From: Pseudomonas sp. SCA2728.1_7
Lineage (GTDB): Bacteria; Pseudomonadota; Gammaproteobacteria; Pseudomonadales; Pseudomonadaceae
NCBI RefSeq assembly: GCF_018138145.1
Contig: NZ_CP073104.1
Span: 5,857,001-5,921,000, forward strand
Reading direction: 5' to 3'
DNA: 64,000 bases
In this document: in pieces, positions 22,104-29,327 of the stretch
How the letters are laid out: each line of letters starts with the position of its first letter
Position numbering within the stretch: position 1 is the stretch's first letter
Notes under the pieces: model-generated
Told to the model about the DNA's origin: nothing
Seen by the model: only the letters and a program-made list of their open reading frames with translations
Database searches by the model: none
Position numbers and translations under genes: made by a program

Positions 22104-23524
22104 CCATCCCTTTCAAGGTCTTTTCGTTTTGGCAGCCTTGATAACTCTGTCCGTTGAAACATGAGCATGGACCGCTGTGCCTTGAACCCATGTCTTGGGT
22201 TTAGGCACCTTGGGACCGCGGGGGCTTTTCGCAACTTGTTTGGGCTGGATGTTTCTGGCCAACTCCAACAGGCGTTGGGCCAGTTGCTCCAGAGGGACAA
22301 CGGGAAGATATTCTGAGGGCAGTGCAATCTGCATTCCCTCATAACCACTCCTGACCTGAACCGCCAAGTGATAGATGGAAGCTTCCCATCCTTCAGGTTG
22401 AGTCTCCCGGTGAGCTTGCTCGACACTTCGTTTGAGGACGGCCAGGACGTTGTAGGCCAATACCGCAGTAGCGAACCCGAGCAAGGCAGCCTTCGGGCTG
22501 CCAAGGGTTTCGATTTCACTTTCCAGAATCGCTTCCAGTCGCTGGAACATACCTTCAATGCTCCAGCGGCGGCGATAGAGCTCTGCGATCTGCTGTGCAC
22601 TGACGCTCTGGGGTAGGTTGCTCCAGAACATCAAGCTGCTGTCTCCCGAGTCCGTTGGAGAATGAAGCGTCAGCTCGACCCGCCGACATTGGTAACCGCC
22701 TCTGACCTGGATGATCTGCTCGCGCACAGTGCCTGTTTCCACAGGTACCGGCTCTTGCCACTCACCTTCTTGAATCAAGCGTGGATGCTTGGCTTGCTGG
22801 CGAATGACAAAGGACGTCTGGGCCTGCTCACAAGCTTCCATGACCGGGAGCGTGCAATAGAGTCGATCAGCCAGCCACACCTGGCCCGGCTCGGCACTGG
22901 CCAATAGAGGCAGCACACACACTCGCTCGCTTGCGTAGGCATCCTCACACGCCTGAAGGTCGATGACCTGATCCAGGTCCGGGTCGTAAGCCACCACCGA
23001 AAAGCCGGGACGAGCAGCACCGCGCTCGTGGCGTAAAGCCCCCAAGCGTTTCTCAGTAGATGCCAAGTGATTACCGTCCACTATCCGAATCTGCCAACCC
23101 GGCAGCATCGCCGTACAACCCAGCTGTTTGATGGTTGGAGCCAGGCGTTGTGCACAGCCTGTAACCAGAGCGCGCAACAGCGCGGGTTCGGTACGACTGA
23201 TCTTGTCGTAGAGAGCCGCCAAACTGACAGGAAGATCTTCCAGTTGCCGCGCGGCGGCGTGCAGGGATGGCTTCAAGCCCAATGAAACAAGGGACATCAG
23301 CTTGACGATGGTCGAGAACAGTAGCTCACGAGAATACTGCCGTTGCCGATGCTCTTCGAAAACCTGATCGACCCACTCAGGGGCAATAGCCTGCTCCAGC
23401 GCCAATTTAGCCATGACACTGGCGGGTGCTTTTTTCTCGAAACGCGCTAGAACATCGGCCCACATCGTTTGGGATCCCTGAATGAAATTTCAGGGGATTT
23501 TACCGAAGACCTTGAAAGGGATGG
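22104..23524 (-). mobile_element. IS4-family insertion sequence, copy 2
   Basis: A complete 1421-bp element, nearly identical to 10060-11481 (one base shorter in the leader before the transposase). The same 19-bp terminal inverted repeats starting CCATCCCTTTCAAGG, with a 9-bp target duplication CTCTTACAG (22095-22103 and 23525-23533). Orientation and insertion point within the host repeat are the same as in copy 1. Confidence 0.95.
22113..23465 (-). CDS. IS4-family transposase
   Basis: DDE transposase of 450 residues, intact; catalytic motifs as in the first copy (RIVDGNHL, VWLADRLYC, YRRRWSIEGMFQRLE). The visible residue differences from copy 1 cluster in FSTIVKLMS and in RLAPTIKQLGCTAMLPG, all conservative. 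The cluster of silent and replacement changes between about 23080 and 23280 suggests a small patch of separate ancestry or gene conversion, while the rest is identical. Confidence 0.95.
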   Translation of the reverse strand: MWADVLARFEKKAPASVMAKLALEQAIAPEWVDQVFEEHRQRQYSRELLFSTIVKLMSLVSLGLKPSLHAAARQLEDLPVSLAALYDKISRTEPALLRALVTGCAQRLAPTIKQLGCTAMLPGWQIRIVDGNHLASTEKRLGALRHERGAARPGFSVVAYDPDLDQVIDLQACEDAYASERVCVLPLLASAEPGQVWLADRLYCTLPVMEACEQAQTSFVIRQQAKHPRLIQEGEWQEPVPVETGTVREQIIQVRGGYQCRRVELTLHSPTDSGDSSLMFWSNLPQSVSAQQIAELYRRRWSIEGMFQRLEAILESEIETLGSPKAALLGFATAVLAYNVLAVLKRSVEQAHRETQPEGWEASIYHLAVQVRSGYEGMQIALPSEYLPVVPLEQLAQRLLELARNIQPKQVAKSPRGPKVPKPKTWVQGTAVHAHVSTDRVIKAAKTKRP

Positions 23525-25249: not shown

Positions 25250-25325
25250 GTCCCCTTCGTCTAGTGGCCTAGGACACCGCCCTTTCACGGCGGTAACAGG
25301 GGTTCGAGTCCCCTAGGGGACGCCA
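25250..25325 (+). tRNA. tRNA-Glu (TTC), copy 1
   Basis: 76 nt with encoded CCA. Acceptor GTCCCCT pairs with AGGGGAC; anticodon loop CTTTCAC carries TTC; T-arm AGGGGTTCGAGTCCCCT. Identical to copies at 25508 and 25720. Confidence 0.97.
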
Positions 25326-25327
25326 AT

Positions 25328-25403
<76 letters not shown>

Positions 25404-25507
25404 ATTTTAAACAGTAGCGCTTTCGGGCGGTGCTGAGTGAAACCAGAACCAAGTCTTCGGACAAGGATCTGGACACCGAAACACACACCATGTGTTCCGG
25501 GTAGCGT

Positions 25508-25583
25508 GTCCCCTTCGTCTAGTGGCCTAGGACACCGCCCTTTCACGGCGGTAACAGGGGTTCGAGTCCCCTAGGGGACGCCA
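25508..25583 (+). tRNA. tRNA-Glu (TTC), copy 2
   Basis: Sequence identical to the first tRNA-Glu, 104 bases after the first tRNA-Gly. The spacer between pairs has no clear terminator, so it is probably read through. Confidence 0.97.
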
Positions 25584-25586
25584 TTT

Positions 25587-25662
<76 letters not shown>

Positions 25663-25672
25663 AATTCTAAAG

Positions 25673-25697
25673 ACGCCGCTCAGTGAGCGGCGTTTTT
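25673..25697 (+). terminator. Terminator-like hairpin between tRNA pairs 2 and 3
   Basis: ACGCCGCTCA and TGAGCGGCGT arms, then five T. It resembles the hairpin after the third pair (25881), so it was probably copied with the unit; pair 3 may depend on read-through or on its own weak promoter. Confidence 0.7.
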
Positions 25698-25719
25698 ATT
25701 AGTGAAAGTTGTAGCCTGT

Positions 25720-25795
25720 GTCCCCTTCGTCTAGTGGCCTAGGACACCGCCCTTTCACGGCGGTAACAGGGGTTCGAGTCCCCTAGGGGACGCCA
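25720..25795 (+). tRNA. tRNA-Glu (TTC), copy 3
   Basis: Identical to the other two tRNA-Glu copies. It lies 22 bases after the hairpin at 25673. Confidence 0.97.
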
Positions 25796-25797
25796 TT

Positions 25798-25873
<76 letters not shown>

Positions 25874-26001: not shown

Positions 26002-26640
26002 TTACCAGGACAGCATCAAGCGCCCGGCAAACAGAATCAGCACCACGCCCATGGTGCGTTCGAACCAATGTCCCATGCGCATGAACAGCACTCGAACCCG
26101 ACTGCTCGAGAAAAACAGCGCGACCACGACAAACCACAGCGCATTCACAAAACACATCCACAGTCCGTAAAAGGCCTGGATTTGCAGTGGCGTGCTGGCG
26201 CTGATGATCGTTGTGAAAATAGCCAGGAAAAACAGCGTGGCCTTGGGGTTGGTCGCATTGGTCAGAAACCCGGTGCTGAAGGCTTTGAACAGGGTTTGTT
26301 CAACCACCGGCTCCTCGCTGGTTTTCTCACCTTCAATGGCCGATTTGGGTTTGCTGCGCAACAGGCTGACACCCAAATACAGGATGTAAGCACCGCCAAC
26401 CACTTTGGCCACGGTCAGCAACCACGGGGTGGTGTGCATCAATGCGCCCACACCGAGCAGCGTGTACAGCACGTGTACGGAAATCCCCGCGCCAATACCC
26501 AGCGCCGTGCAAATCCCCACCAGTCGGCCGAATCGAACGCTTTGGCGAATGGTGACCGCGAAGTCGGGGCCGGGAGCAACCACGGCCAGAAAGTGAATGG
26601 TAGCCAGCGCCAGAAACTCGCCCAGATAATTCGAATACAT
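26002..26640 (-). CDS. LysE/RhtB-family amino-acid exporter
   Basis: Inner-membrane exporter of 212 residues, about six TM segments. The family signature FLAVVAPGPDFAVTIRQS sits near the N-terminus and TNATNPKATLFFLAIF in the middle. LysE/RhtB proteins export amino acids or their derivatives. The start lies one base after the stop of the Fe(II)/2-oxoglutarate oxygenase gene, the tightest kind of operon link. The likely cargo is therefore the product of that oxygenase; this is inference. A strong terminator follows at 25951. Confidence 0.93.
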   Translation of the reverse strand: MYSNYLGEFLALATIHFLAVVAPGPDFAVTIRQSVRFGRLVGICTALGIGAGISVHVLYTLLGVGALMHTTPWLLTVAKVVGGAYILYLGVSLLRSKPKSAIEGEKTSEEPVVEQTLFKAFSTGFLTNATNPKATLFFLAIFTTIISASTPLQIQAFYGLWMCFVNALWFVVVALFFSSSRVRVLFMRMGHWFERTMGVVLILFAGRLMLSW

Positions 26641-26641
26641 C

Positions 26642-27427
26642 TCAGCTCCAGTAGGTCAGGGGTGAAGCATTGCCGCGATAGCCGACAAAAAAGGAAAGAC
26701 TCAAACGCGGATCGGCCACGCCCGGGGTCACCGAGTGCATGCGCCGCGAATTGAACATGATGAAATCGCCGGGTTGCGGTCGGACTTCGAGGGTGGGTGG
26801 GCCGAGCAGCGCCGGTTCAATGCCGTAGCTGTCGCCACGCATCTCGTCGAATTGATCCGGGCTGATGTCGTCGTCCCACATCTGCAGCGCGCCGCCCTCG
26901 GTCGGCATGTTCAGATAGACGTTGCAAGCGAACTGCGCCTCCAGGCTGCGGGCCTGGAAGCTGTCCGGGGCGTCTTTGGCGAAGATGTCGTGGTGGGCGA
27001 GGAAGCACACGCCGGGTTTCACCACTCGCGAAAGGCCGACATACATTTTCCGTCCATAGAGGTTTTCCAGGTGCGCACCGGCCGGCCAGGACTCGTCGAG
27101 CATGCAGCGCAAGGTGTCGATCGGTGAAGAGTAGGGCGCGCAGCGATTGCGCAGTTCGGCGATGTTGCTGGTGGCGCGTTCGAAGTAATCCTCGATCAGC
27201 AGCGGCTGGTTTTCCGCCTCGTAAAAGGCCATGCCGATGCGGCCGATACTCGGTGCGTTGATGTAACCCTCAAAGCCTGGAGCGAGAATCTTGTCGCCAA
27301 TCTGAATGGCCAGCGGCTCCGGCAAAAAGCCTTTGACGCGGATGGCGAGGACTTCTTCGTTGGCCAGTTTTTTTATGCACGTCTCATCGAGACGCTCGAC
27401 GTCTAGCATCATTTTTTTTAGGTCCAT
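26642..27427 (-). CDS. Fe(II)/2-oxoglutarate-dependent oxygenase
   Basis: A 261-residue double-stranded beta-helix oxygenase. Likely iron ligands are His145 and Asp147 (in FLAHHDIF) and His231 (RRMHSVTPG); Arg241 (PRLSLSFFVGYRG) would bind 2-oxoglutarate. The intact H-x-D favours hydroxylation; radical halogenases of the BesD type have Gly at the Asp place. NVYLNMPTEGGALQMWDD is the usual core strand pair. No signal peptide. The gene sits 74 nt after an alaX-type gene and one nt before a LysE exporter, so a free amino acid is the probable substrate. No good Shine-Dalgarno is visible, CTATCGATAG directly precedes the ATG, and codons 3-5 hold a run of eight A. Confidence 0.88.
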   Translation of the reverse strand: MDLKKMMLDVERLDETCIKKLANEEVLAIRVKGFLPEPLAIQIGDKILAPGFEGYINAPSIGRIGMAFYEAENQPLLIEDYFERATSNIAELRNRCAPYSSPIDTLRCMLDESWPAGAHLENLYGRKMYVGLSRVVKPGVCFLAHHDIFAKDAPDSFQARSLEAQFACNVYLNMPTEGGALQMWDDDISPDQFDEMRGDSYGIEPALLGPPTLEVRPQPGDFIMFNSRRMHSVTPGVADPRLSLSFFVGYRGNASPLTYWS

Positions 27428-27470
27428 CTATCGATAGTCTACGGAAGCTGCGAGTGCAGTTCCCCGGCGT

Positions 27471-27495
27471 CGGACGCTGCGTGAGGCAACGTCCG
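27471..27495 (-). other. Intra-operon hairpin between alaX-type and oxygenase genes
   Basis: On the minus-strand RNA a 10-bp stem (CGGACGUUGC, loop CUCAC, GCAGCGUCCG) pairs fully with one U-G wobble. No T-run follows, so it is not a standard terminator; it may stabilise or separate the two cistrons. Confidence 0.45.
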
Positions 27496-27501
27496 GAATG
27501 C

Positions 27502-28128
27502 TCAATCCACGCTGTAGTGGACGGACAGCGTGCCTTTCTTCTGCGAAAGGGACGCGATCGTGACTGTGCCCAGATCCTTCAGGCTACGTACATGGGTGCC
27601 GCCGCAGCCATAAGCCGGGAGTTCACCGAAACCGATCTCCCGCGCACCTTCGCGCAGCGAGGTCAGGCGGGGTAGATCGTGTTCGATCCACTGGCCGATG
27701 CCGCACTGAACGGTCTCGGCGTCGACTTCCTGCGCGGCATCACCGGGTTTGAATTGCACGCGACCTTCATCCGGCCAGTGGTGGGCCTTGATCGGCATCC
27801 AGCCCATGGCCTGAACGAAATGCCCGATCAGGTGGCCGGCTGAATGCATGCGCGTATTGAACCGGCGACGCTCTTCGTCAACACGAATACAGGTCATGCC
27901 GAGCTTTACCGGTCGGTCGACAAAATGAATGATCCGCTCCGGCTCCTGCACTACACGCAGTACCTGGCTTTCGCCGATCCAGCCGGTATCACATGGCTGA
28001 CCGCCGCCTTGCGGATGAAACAGTGTGGCGCGCAATACCACGGCGAATTCGTGCTCTTGGGGCGTGCAGTCGAGGACTTCCACATTGGCCTTGAGGTCAT
28101 CACTATGGAAAAAGAGGCGAAGCGTCAT
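27502..28128 (-). CDS. AlaX-type tRNA trans-editing protein
   Basis: Free-standing editing domain related to the AlaRS editing half, 208 residues. Zinc-site motifs are intact: HSAGH (in NTRMHSAGHLIGHF) and CGGTH (in AYGCGGTHVRSLKDLG). The N-terminal FHPQGGGQPCDTGWI is also typical. Such proteins hydrolyse mischarged Ser- or Gly-tRNA(Ala). ATG 28128 is chosen because AAGGG lies 8 nt upstream; the longer frame from 28197 runs through the promoter region. It is the first gene of a probable operon with the oxygenase and LysE genes, divergent from a LysR gene. Protection against a modified amino acid made next door is an attractive inference. Confidence 0.92.
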   Translation of the reverse strand: MTLRLFFHSDDLKANVEVLDCTPQEHEFAVVLRATLFHPQGGGQPCDTGWIGESQVLRVVQEPERIIHFVDRPVKLGMTCIRVDEERRRFNTRMHSAGHLIGHFVQAMGWMPIKAHHWPDEGRVQFKPGDAAQEVDAETVQCGIGQWIEHDLPRLTSLREGAREIGFGELPAYGCGGTHVRSLKDLGTVTIASLSQKKGTLSVHYSVD

Positions 28129-28218
28129 ATTCCATGCCCTTATTAAAGTTTCTGTTTTTATTATATGAATCGTGCAATAACGTGATAATCCGTTCAAACA
28201 TCAAAGGACTTGTGCGCT
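28129..28218. promoter_or_regulatory. Divergent alaX/LysR control region
   Basis: A 90-bp AT-rich spacer between the divergent starts. ATTAT and ATAAT arms around 28157-28186 form an interrupted dyad that could be the LysR-type operator. Exact -10 and -35 boxes were not assigned. Confidence 0.5.
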
Positions 28219-29217
28219 GTGAGCATCAATCTGCCGCTACCGCTGCTCGGTGAAATGGCGATTTTCGTCAAGGTTGTGGAGACCGGCAGCTTCTCTGAAG
28301 CCGCTCGGCAACTGGGCTCATCGCCGTCAGCGGTGAGCCGTAGTATTTCGCGGCTGGAAAAAGCCTTGGCCACGCGGTTGTTGCAGCGCACCACGCGCAA
28401 GCTGCGTTTGAGTGATGGTGGAGAAGAGGTTTTCAAGCGTTGTCAGGAAATGGTCAGCGCGGCGAAATCGGTGATGGAAATCAGCGGCCAGTTCACCCAT
28501 GAAGCGGAAGGGCTCGTGCGGGTCAGCGTACCGAAAGCGGTAGGTCGCTTCGTGATTCATCCGCACATGCCCGAGTTTCTGCGACGCTATCCCAAGGTCG
28601 ATGTCGAGTTGCTGCTGGAAGATCGCCAGGTCGATTTGATCGACGACCATGTCGATCTGGCGATTCGAATCACCGATCGACCACCGGCCGGGCTGGTCGG
28701 GCGGCAATTGCTGACCATCGATCATTTGCTCTGTGCCACGCCGCAATACCTGGCTGAGCACGGCACACCGACCCACCCCCATGATTTGCTCAATCACAGT
28801 TGTATCTATCTGGGTGAAACCCCCAGTGATGCACGCTGGAAATTCAAGAAAGGCAGCAAGGCAGTGACGGTGGGTGTGCGCGGTCGCTATGCCGCCAATC
28901 ACACGGGCGTGCGCTTGGGCGCGGTGTTGCAGCACATCGGCATTGGCAGCCTGCCGTATTTCACTGCCCGTTACGCACTTGAGCAGAAGTTGATTGTGCA
29001 GGTGCTGCCGGACTGGACCTTCCTCGCGTCCTACCATGGCGGACTGTGGTTGCTGCATTCGCCGACGCGCTATCTGCCTCCCAAGTTGCGGGTGTTTATC
29101 GACTATCTGGTGGAGTGTCTGCAGAAAGAGCCTACCTTGAGCAAGCCGGGCAAGTCAGGTGGTGCGAGTAACGCAGCCATGGCGTATGAATTACCGGAAA
29201 GCGAAGGGCTGCTCTAA
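28219..29217 (+). CDS. LysR-family transcriptional regulator
   Basis: A 332-residue regulator. The winged HTH lies at about 10-70 (MAIFVKVVETGSFSEAARQL, SPSAVSRSISRLEKAL), and the periplasmic-binding-like effector domain follows (VRVSVPKAVGRFVIHP, VDLAIRITDRPP). GTG 28219 fits AAAGGA at 10 nt; the upstream TTG at 28210 is too close to it. It is divergent from the alaX-oxygenase-lysE operon across 90 bp, so it very probably controls that operon and itself. The inducer may be the substrate or product amino acid. The C-terminal 25 residues are a low-complexity extension. Confidence 0.92.
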   Translation: MSINLPLPLLGEMAIFVKVVETGSFSEAARQLGSSPSAVSRSISRLEKALATRLLQRTTRKLRLSDGGEEVFKRCQEMVSAAKSVMEISGQFTHEAEGLVRVSVPKAVGRFVIHPHMPEFLRRYPKVDVELLLEDRQVDLIDDHVDLAIRITDRPPAGLVGRQLLTIDHLLCATPQYLAEHGTPTHPHDLLNHSCIYLGETPSDARWKFKKGSKAVTVGVRGRYAANHTGVRLGAVLQHIGIGSLPYFTARYALEQKLIVQVLPDWTFLASYHGGLWLLHSPTRYLPPKLRVFIDYLVECLQKEPTLSKPGKSGGASNAAMAYELPESEGLL

Positions 29218-29225
29218 CGCAGAAG

Positions 29226-29306
29226 CAAAAGATCGCAGCCTTCGGCAGCTCCTACAGGGGATTGCGTGAGTCCACTGTAGGAGCTGCCGAAGGCTGCGAT
29301 CTTTTG
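29226..29306. repeat. REPIN, family B
   Basis: Long inverted arms, CAAAAGATCGCAGCCTTCGG onward to CTCCTACAG, and the exact reverse complement. A second copy is at 54755. Confidence 0.93.
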
Positions 29307-29327
29307 ATTTTCAACCAAACAGTTAAA

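What the first reader, a model, noticed from the sequence alone, without database searches (positions are those of the whole stretch)
26002..29217. Four-gene module: AlaX editing protein, Fe(II)/2OG oxygenase, LysE exporter, divergent LysR regulator
Seen: alaX-type (27502-28128), oxygenase (26642-27427) and lysE (26002-26640) lie in one direction, with only one base between the oxygenase stop and the exporter start. A LysR gene diverges across a 90-bp AT-rich spacer. Known: 2OG oxygenases hydroxylate free amino acids, LysE/RhtB proteins export them, and AlaX clears mischarged tRNA. Inference: the module makes a modified amino acid, pumps it out and protects the proteome by hydrolysing tRNA charged with it. 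I know of no described system that joins these three roles in one operon.
Basis: partly seen in the sequence, partly recalled or inferred. Interest (0 to 1): 0.8.

Follow-up and report, generated by a model that had tools for sequence, protein, structure and literature searches.

The report
Self-protected amino-acid antimetabolite cassette
A Pseudomonas genome carries a compact set of genes, found linked in distant bacteria and on small plasmids, in which an iron oxygenase likely makes a toxic amino-acid analogue, a membrane protein likely exports it, and a tRNA-editing enzyme is predicted to keep it out of the cell's own proteins.

Summary
The four genes are real and at the stated places. The oxygenase is tied to AlaX and LysE: in 199 Pseudomonas genomes all 43 oxygenase orthologues sit beside both and a divergent LysR, as do 80 of 80 kept genome-contig loci. 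The oxygenase-AlaX link recurs in Acinetobacter, Photobacterium, Caballeronia, Undibacterium and Embleya, with changed gene order and sometimes another exporter. The reverse is not true: 46 of 89 AlaX loci lack the oxygenase, yet their AlaX genes stay under purifying selection. 'Enzyme almost never without antidote, antidote often without enzyme' fits a secreted amino-acid antimetabolite with self-immunity. One open oxygenase, probably of Xenorhabdus bovienii, lacks AlaX. The oxygenase has a WelO5-type fold but a hydroxylase HxD iron site; AlaX has an AlaX-M fold with intact zinc ligands. Substrate, product and tRNA are unknown. The logic has precedent: fluorothreonine producers pair synthesis, tRNA editing and export, with another editing family. 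New variant of a known kind; the main rival is a pure resistance operon against an outside amino acid.

The parts
28219..29217 (+). lysR-type regulator (332 aa, GTG start), divergent from alaX
   Evidence: PF03466 E 6.4e-38, PF00126 E 1.8e-20; divergent position kept in 85 of 89 AlaX loci of the genus
28129..28218 (.). lysR/alaX intergenic control region
   Evidence: 90 bp; 34 selected of 86 extracted spacers aligned
28182..28191 (-). conserved GGATTATCAC box overlapping the -35 hexamer TTATCA of the predicted alaX promoter; likely LysR operator/promoter
   Evidence: TTATCA in 34 of 34 aligned spacers, GGATTATCA in 33 of 34; -35/-10 pair
27502..28128 (-). AlaX-type trans-editing protein (208 aa); zinc ligands H95, H99, C175, H179; predicted immunity gene
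26642..27427 (-). Fe(II)/2OG oxygenase, WelO5-type fold with HxD hydroxylase triad (H145, D147, H231) and R241; likely start at 27412
26002..26640 (-). LysE/RhtB-type exporter (212 aa)
   Evidence: PF01810 E 2.6e-36; best NCBIfam match the homoserine/threonine efflux subfamily TIGR00949, 152.4 bits, below its cut-off 183.95

Best explanation
The operon likely makes and exports a toxic hydroxylated amino acid while protecting its host: the WelO5-fold, HxD-type Fe(II)/2OG oxygenase is predicted to hydroxylate a common free amino acid, the LysE/RhtB-type protein would export the product, the AlaX-type enzyme would hydrolyse tRNA mischarged with it, and the divergent LysR regulator probably senses it. 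Shown: the four genes, their conserved linkage, the nested presence pattern (oxygenase only with exporter and AlaX in 43 of 43 Pseudomonas loci, AlaX often alone), the HxD and zinc motifs, the folds of the predicted models, and the shared spacer box. Inferred: hydroxylation of a free amino acid, a product resembling serine, threonine or alanine (from AlaX chemistry and the threonine/homoserine-type exporter), toxicity through mistranslation, and AlaX-only strains being immune non-producers.
For: Linkage: 43 of 43 close orthologues in 199 genomes of the genus; 80 of 80 kept genome-contig loci, all Pseudomonas (the tool kept 80 of 136 relatives, the other 56 were not seen). Divergent oxygenases (28-36%) still pair with AlaX in Caballeronia, Undibacterium, Embleya and three further genomes, in the order oxygenase-AlaX, with an MFS gene in place of LysE in Embleya. 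Asymmetry: oxygenase 43, all with LysE and AlaX; AlaX 89, of which 37 LysR|AlaX only and 5 LysR|AlaX-LysE; on the AlaX tree the full state needs at least 7 changes, with oxygenase-less genomes nested inside full clades. Decay of the oxygenase with AlaX kept: G454 has one in-frame TAG; G1210 keeps only about the last 63 residues between open AlaX and LysE genes. AlaX in oxygenase-less loci has median dN/dS 0.131 against 0.105 in full loci. HxD triad invariant in 24 of 24. The same roles are assembled from other families in G412 and G852: PhyH dioxygenase - AlaX - EamA exporter - thioesterase, with a carrier protein in G852.
Against: No product, substrate, tRNA or toxicity is shown. In G415 AlaX is split over two frames beside an open oxygenase (assembly error not excluded). 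In G1197 a deletion cut both AlaX and oxygenase and LysE is kept. Of the 46 oxygenase-less AlaX genes in the genus, 3 are themselves broken (G411, G487, G432). AlaX without oxygenase is so common that AlaX must have a job apart from the oxygenase in the same cell. More distant oxygenase relatives lack AlaX: 8 of 15 plasmid records (25-37%), 13 of 13 paralogues in 199 genomes, 4 of 4 paralogues in the probable Xenorhabdus genus, G041. The AlaX-only data come mostly from one clade, so the counts are not all independent. The regulator is not part of the conserved set outside relatives: no LysR was found beside the full loci in Acinetobacter, Photobacterium or the probable Xenorhabdus genus.
Confidence: 0.5

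Rival explanations
1. A pure resistance operon: an outside toxic amino acid (from plants, fungi or rival bacteria) induces LysR; AlaX clears mischarged tRNA, LysE expels the compound and the oxygenase detoxifies it by hydroxylation. Nothing toxic is made by the host.
For: LysR|AlaX alone (37 of 89) and LysR|AlaX-LysE (5 of 89) are common, as expected of layered resistance; small plasmids carry AlaX-oxygenase-LysE or LysR|AlaX-LysE, like resistance cargo. CtdA of Pseudomonas canavaninivorans is such an editing protein, lying in front of a canavanine utilization operon (passages of PMC10018355).
Against: Independent layers should sometimes occur apart, yet the oxygenase is found with both partners in 43 of 43 genus loci and with AlaX in 9 of 10 close out-of-genus records. 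Hydroxylation as detoxification of an amino-acid analogue has no precedent that I can name (recall). A PhyH-AlaX-exporter set sits with thioesterase and carrier protein, i.e. in a biosynthetic setting.
Confidence: 0.3
2. tRNA as carrier: the oxygenase oxidises the aminoacyl group while it sits on tRNA, AlaX releases the finished amino acid by hydrolysis as a thioesterase would, and LysE exports it.
For: The cassette has no adenylation or carrier protein; its relatives pair either with AlaX or, as paralogues in Pseudomonas and in the probable Xenorhabdus genus, with a cyclodipeptide synthase or its relative, enzymes known (recall) to consume aminoacyl-tRNA. Near-absolute linkage to AlaX fits a pathway enzyme.
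Against: WelO5 and SadA, the nearest folds, act on small free molecules (titles and general knowledge); AlaX is kept without the oxygenase in 46 of 89 loci, and one oxygenase-LysE pair lacks AlaX.
Confidence: 0.07
3. The genes serve ordinary metabolism: the oxygenase makes a harmless signal, osmolyte or nutrient amino acid, LysE is an overflow valve, and AlaX only edits Ser/Gly-tRNA(Ala).
For: AlaX family members are known to edit Ser- and Gly-tRNA(Ala) (passages of PMC11295145); LysE proteins often relieve amino-acid excess (general knowledge).
Against: A general editing role does not explain why the oxygenase is tied to AlaX across orders; the host also has two large SAD-domain proteins, by eye AlaRS and ThrRS; patchy presence (43 of 199 genomes) and plasmid carriage do not fit housekeeping.
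Confidence: 0.1

Closest known systems
Fluorothreonine loci of Streptomyces cattleya and sp. MA37: FthB (fluorothreonyl-tRNA deacylase) and FthC (exporter)
   Same: Producer of a toxic amino-acid analogue protects itself with a stand-alone tRNA deacylase and an exporter encoded in the same gene cluster (passages of PMC7408626 and PMC7162832)
   Different: FthB is described as ProXp-ST1-related (PMC11295145 passage), not AlaX; the amino acid is made by a fluorinase and transaldolase route, not by a 2OG oxygenase; FthC is EamA-type by recall, not LysE
AMB cluster (ambABCDE) of Pseudomonas aeruginosa
   Same: LysE-type transporter plus two Fe(II)/2OG oxygenases for a toxic non-proteinogenic amino acid (passages of PMC4357302)
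   Different: Needs two NRPS proteins; the words AlaX and editing do not occur in that paper; here no NRPS gene lies in the cassette
CtdA, canavanyl-tRNA(Arg) deacylase of Pseudomonas canavaninivorans
   Same: Stand-alone editing protein in a Pseudomonas, protecting against a toxic amino acid (PMC10018355 passages)
   Different: B3/4-domain protein, for an outside plant compound, beside utilization genes
AlaX-M trans-editing proteins (Pyrococcus, PDB 2e1b, 9iuw)
   Same: Fold and zinc motif
   Different: 25% identity over the aligned structure; far below the NCBIfam AlaXM equivalog cut-off (68.1 of 300 bits)
WelO5 halogenase and SadA N-substituted L-amino acid dioxygenase
   Different: HxD instead of the halogenase iron site; 16-18% identity

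Membership tests
AlaX trans-editing superfamily | zinc ligands HxxxH and CxxxH plus GGGQ loop | tested here: met
   H95, H99, C175, H179 and G41-Q44 invariant in 17 of 17 rows
AlaX trans-editing superfamily | AlaX-M fold | tested here: met
AlaX-M equivalog (NCBIfam NF040865) | score above curated cut-off 300 bits | tested here: not met
   68.1 bits; so a distinct AlaX subfamily
AlaX trans-editing superfamily | deacylation of mischarged tRNA | not testable with these tools
   needs enzyme assay
Fe(II)/2OG hydroxylases | HxD...H iron triad with distal Arg for 2OG | tested here: met
   H145, D147, H231, R241 invariant in 24 of 24 rows
WelO5-type carrier-independent halogenases | fold | tested here: met
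WelO5-type carrier-independent halogenases | iron site without carboxylate ligand (HxG/A) | tested here: not met
   D147 invariant; halogenases have lost this carboxylate (PMC10187165 passage on BesD, and general knowledge)
LysE/RhtB exporters | PF01810 above gathering score | tested here: met
   125.4 of 25.6 bits
RhtB homoserine/threonine efflux subfamily (TIGR00949) | score above 183.95 bits | tested here: not met
   152.4 bits, best of five
FthB-type editing proteins | ProXp-ST1-related protein | tested here: not met
   AlaX fold and motifs instead; works like it, not a member
AMB-type clusters | NRPS genes beside LysE and 2OG oxygenases | tested here: not met
   no NRPS-sized or adenylation gene in the window's cassette

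The most novel reading that the evidence does not exclude
tRNA is the assembly carrier: the oxygenase tailors an amino acid while it is esterified to tRNA, AlaX acts as the releasing 'thioesterase', and LysE exports the product, making this a three-gene tRNA-templated pathway to a non-protein amino acid; its sister oxygenases hand the modified aminoacyl-tRNA to cyclodipeptide synthases.
Probability: 0.07. Interest if true: 0.92.

Novelty: new variant of a known kind. Interest (0 to 1): 0.66.

Why it matters
If right, this is a very small way to make an amino-acid antimetabolite: one enzyme, one exporter, one immunity gene and a regulator, able to travel on a 6-kb plasmid. It would give many bacterial genes annotated 'alanyl-tRNA editing protein' a new role, immunity against a rival's amino acid, and explain why they are patchy, sometimes plasmid-borne and often orphaned beside a LysR gene. 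It makes a concrete question testable with one enzyme and one deletion strain: which amino acid does the oxygenase change, and from which tRNA does AlaX remove it? A new free-amino-acid hydroxylase and a mistranslation-based antimicrobial would be the pay-off.

Tried and rejected
BesD idea: the Streptomyces cattleya plasmid hit (30%) looked like the lysine chlorinase BesD, but it reads HxD, so it is not shown to be BesD; BesD's substrate residues could not be tested (the residue names I searched for do not occur in the papers). FthB as an AlaX homologue: rejected. Phage or prophage carriage: no match in phage records, no relative in viral contigs. E. coli genomes: no DNA match to the oxygenase gene. 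Literature for AlaX with oxygenase, LysE, gene cluster or self-resistance: searches returned no paper; one review, seen only in the listing; one search listed 20 of 31 papers, none of them by title on this combination. These are open-licence PMC papers only, so absence from print is not shown. Two wanted papers (Novoa 2015, McMurry and Chang 2017) are not held, so the tRNA specificity of AlaX could not be judged from its arginine determinant. In one search the printed labels C174 and H178 are one residue off; the zinc cysteine and histidine are C175 and H179 and were checked. One search used a wrong query file and was repeated; one search failed and was rerun. In one search the support values had not settled, and very long branches (L163, L088, L090) make the deep order unsure. 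The genus tallies and the 80 loci probably overlap in species. Genus names for G-handle genomes are guesses from contig lengths that equal those listed.
Full report

LINKAGE IN PSEUDOMONAS. In 199 genomes of the host genus the oxygenase orthologue (88% identity or more) occurs in 43, and all 43 have AlaX within 2.5 kb; with neighbourhoods read for all 89 AlaX loci, all 43 also have LysE downstream and LysR divergent. One of these oxygenases carries an in-frame TAG (G454) and one of these AlaX genes is split over two frames (G415). A separate scan of genome contigs kept 80 of 136 relatives, all Pseudomonas, and 80 of 80 have the four genes; the two sets may overlap. In contrast, 13 of 13 distant paralogues (28-36%) in the same 199 genomes have no AlaX near; two that I scanned sit beside a cyclodipeptide synthase (PF16715).

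LINKAGE ELSEWHERE. The exception, G1200, has an open oxygenase-LysE pair and no AlaX beside it. LysE is adjacent in the nine of these ten that I read; for the Achromobacter copy LysE was not read. LysR is divergent in the other Pseudomonadaceae genus and the two Acidihalobacter-like genomes, and was not found beside the others. Six records at 28-36% also have AlaX adjacent, now in the order oxygenase-AlaX: three genomes (two with a distant LysE, one of them with a TGA in the oxygenase; one with no LysE seen before the contig end), Caballeronia and Undibacterium (no LysE match beside them) and Embleya, which has an MFS gene next. Of all 15 plasmid records with an oxygenase match, 7 have AlaX adjacent and 8 do not. 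A 27% relative, G041, lies beside an aromatic amino acid lyase and an AMP-binding enzyme, not AlaX, and 4 of 4 paralogues of about 30% in the probable Xenorhabdus genus have no AlaX.

ASYMMETRY. Among the 89 AlaX loci: 43 full, 5 LysR|AlaX-LysE, 37 LysR|AlaX, 2 AlaX-LysE without this LysR, 2 others. So the oxygenase is nested in the exporter state and the exporter in the AlaX state. Three of the 46 oxygenase-less AlaX genes are broken. On an AlaX tree of 93 rows the full state needs at least 7 changes, 5 forced by well-supported branches, and single oxygenase-less genomes lie inside full clades (L156 next to L225); all six out-of-genus rows are full, while three deep rows of the genus (L161-L163) are not. 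Repeated loss of the oxygenase with AlaX kept is the simplest reading; gains are not excluded. Direct decay is seen in G1210, where only about the last 63 oxygenase residues remain between open AlaX and LysE genes. AlaX in loci without the enzyme is still constrained: median dN/dS 0.131 (115 pairs, 36 sequences, mostly one clade) against 0.105 (600 pairs, 43 sequences) in full loci. Against this, G1197 lost parts of both AlaX and oxygenase in one deletion and kept LysE.

REGULATION. The lysR/alaX spacer was extracted from 86 loci and 34 were aligned: TTATCA is kept in 34 of 34 and GGATTATCA in 33 of 34, including orphan LysR|AlaX loci of the probable Xenorhabdus genus and the other Pseudomonadaceae genus. 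In the window it overlaps the -35 hexamer of a promoter-like pair. It probably marks a shared LysR-controlled promoter.

MECHANISM. The presence pattern is that of a poison and its antidote: the enzyme is almost never without exporter and editing protein, while the editing protein is often alone. I therefore read the operon as maker, exporter and immunity for a toxic amino acid; AlaX-only strains would be immune non-producers meeting the compound from neighbours. The product is perhaps Ser-, Thr- or Ala-like, because AlaX proteins remove Ser and Gly from tRNA(Ala) (PMC11295145) and the exporter is nearest to the homoserine/threonine efflux subfamily. A distant oxygenase relative in Streptomyces is followed by a threonine/serine dehydratase gene, a faint hint in the same direction. 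The chief rival, a resistance operon against an outside compound, explains the orphans and the plasmids but not why the oxygenase never stands alone in the genus.

KNOWN SYSTEMS. The same logic is known from fluorothreonine producers: FthB deacylates fluorothreonyl-tRNA and FthC exports fluorothreonine (passages of PMC11295145, PMC7408626 and PMC7162832), with an editing protein of another family. LysE with 2OG oxygenases is known from the AMB cluster, whose authors suggest that AmbA exports AMB and could aid resistance (passages of PMC4357302). CtdA is a stand-alone editing protein against an outside compound (passages of PMC10018355). A second AlaX-containing set, PhyH dioxygenase - AlaX - EamA exporter - thioesterase, in G412 and, with a carrier protein, in G852 shows the same roles assembled from other families. 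I found no paper joining AlaX, a 2OG oxygenase and LysE.

VERDICT. Real, conserved, mobile and functionally coupled; biochemical role inferred. New variant of a known kind.

Noticed in passing
L169:3282-4811, L170:3991-5525, L238, L239, L240, L242: Paralogues of the oxygenase (30-36%) lie directly beside a cyclodipeptide synthase (PF16715 in L169 and L170) or a relative of it (L238 partner, no Pfam match but 41% identical to the L170 one; similar frames in L239, L240, L242), with an MFS gene in L169: a sister pairing with an enzyme family that uses aminoacyl-tRNA.
   Followed up: partly
L163:2949-6255, L252:53-3390, L249:558-2244: PhyH dioxygenase - AlaX - EamA exporter - thioesterase, in L252 also a carrier protein: an independent set with the same roles in Pseudomonas and a probable Xenorhabdus genus; L249 shows AlaX beside an EamA-like gene.
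   Followed up: partly
L262:1986-4276: 15-kb Acinetobacter johnsonii plasmid carries LysR|AlaX-LysE without an oxygenase between them.
   Followed up: no
L261:1845-4168: On a conjugative Cupriavidus plasmid AlaX lies between an AraC regulator and a RidA-family gene, perhaps hinting at serine/threonine-type chemistry.
   Followed up: no
L267:2962-4838: A distant oxygenase relative in Streptomyces is followed after 23 bases by a threonine/serine dehydratase gene.
   Followed up: no
window 25250-25873: Three tandem tRNA-Glu/tRNA-Gly pairs lie just beyond lysE.
   Followed up: no
window 22113-23465: Transposase gene, PF01609 E 2.2e-14.
   Followed up: no
window 29223-29309: 39-base inverted repeat (95% complementary) with a 9-base loop after lysR; a REP-like element or terminator.
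   Followed up: no
L088, L090, L152, L173, L175: Across genera AlaX diverges faster (31-50% identity to the window's) than its neighbours oxygenase (56-69%) and LysE (56-72%).
   Followed up: partly
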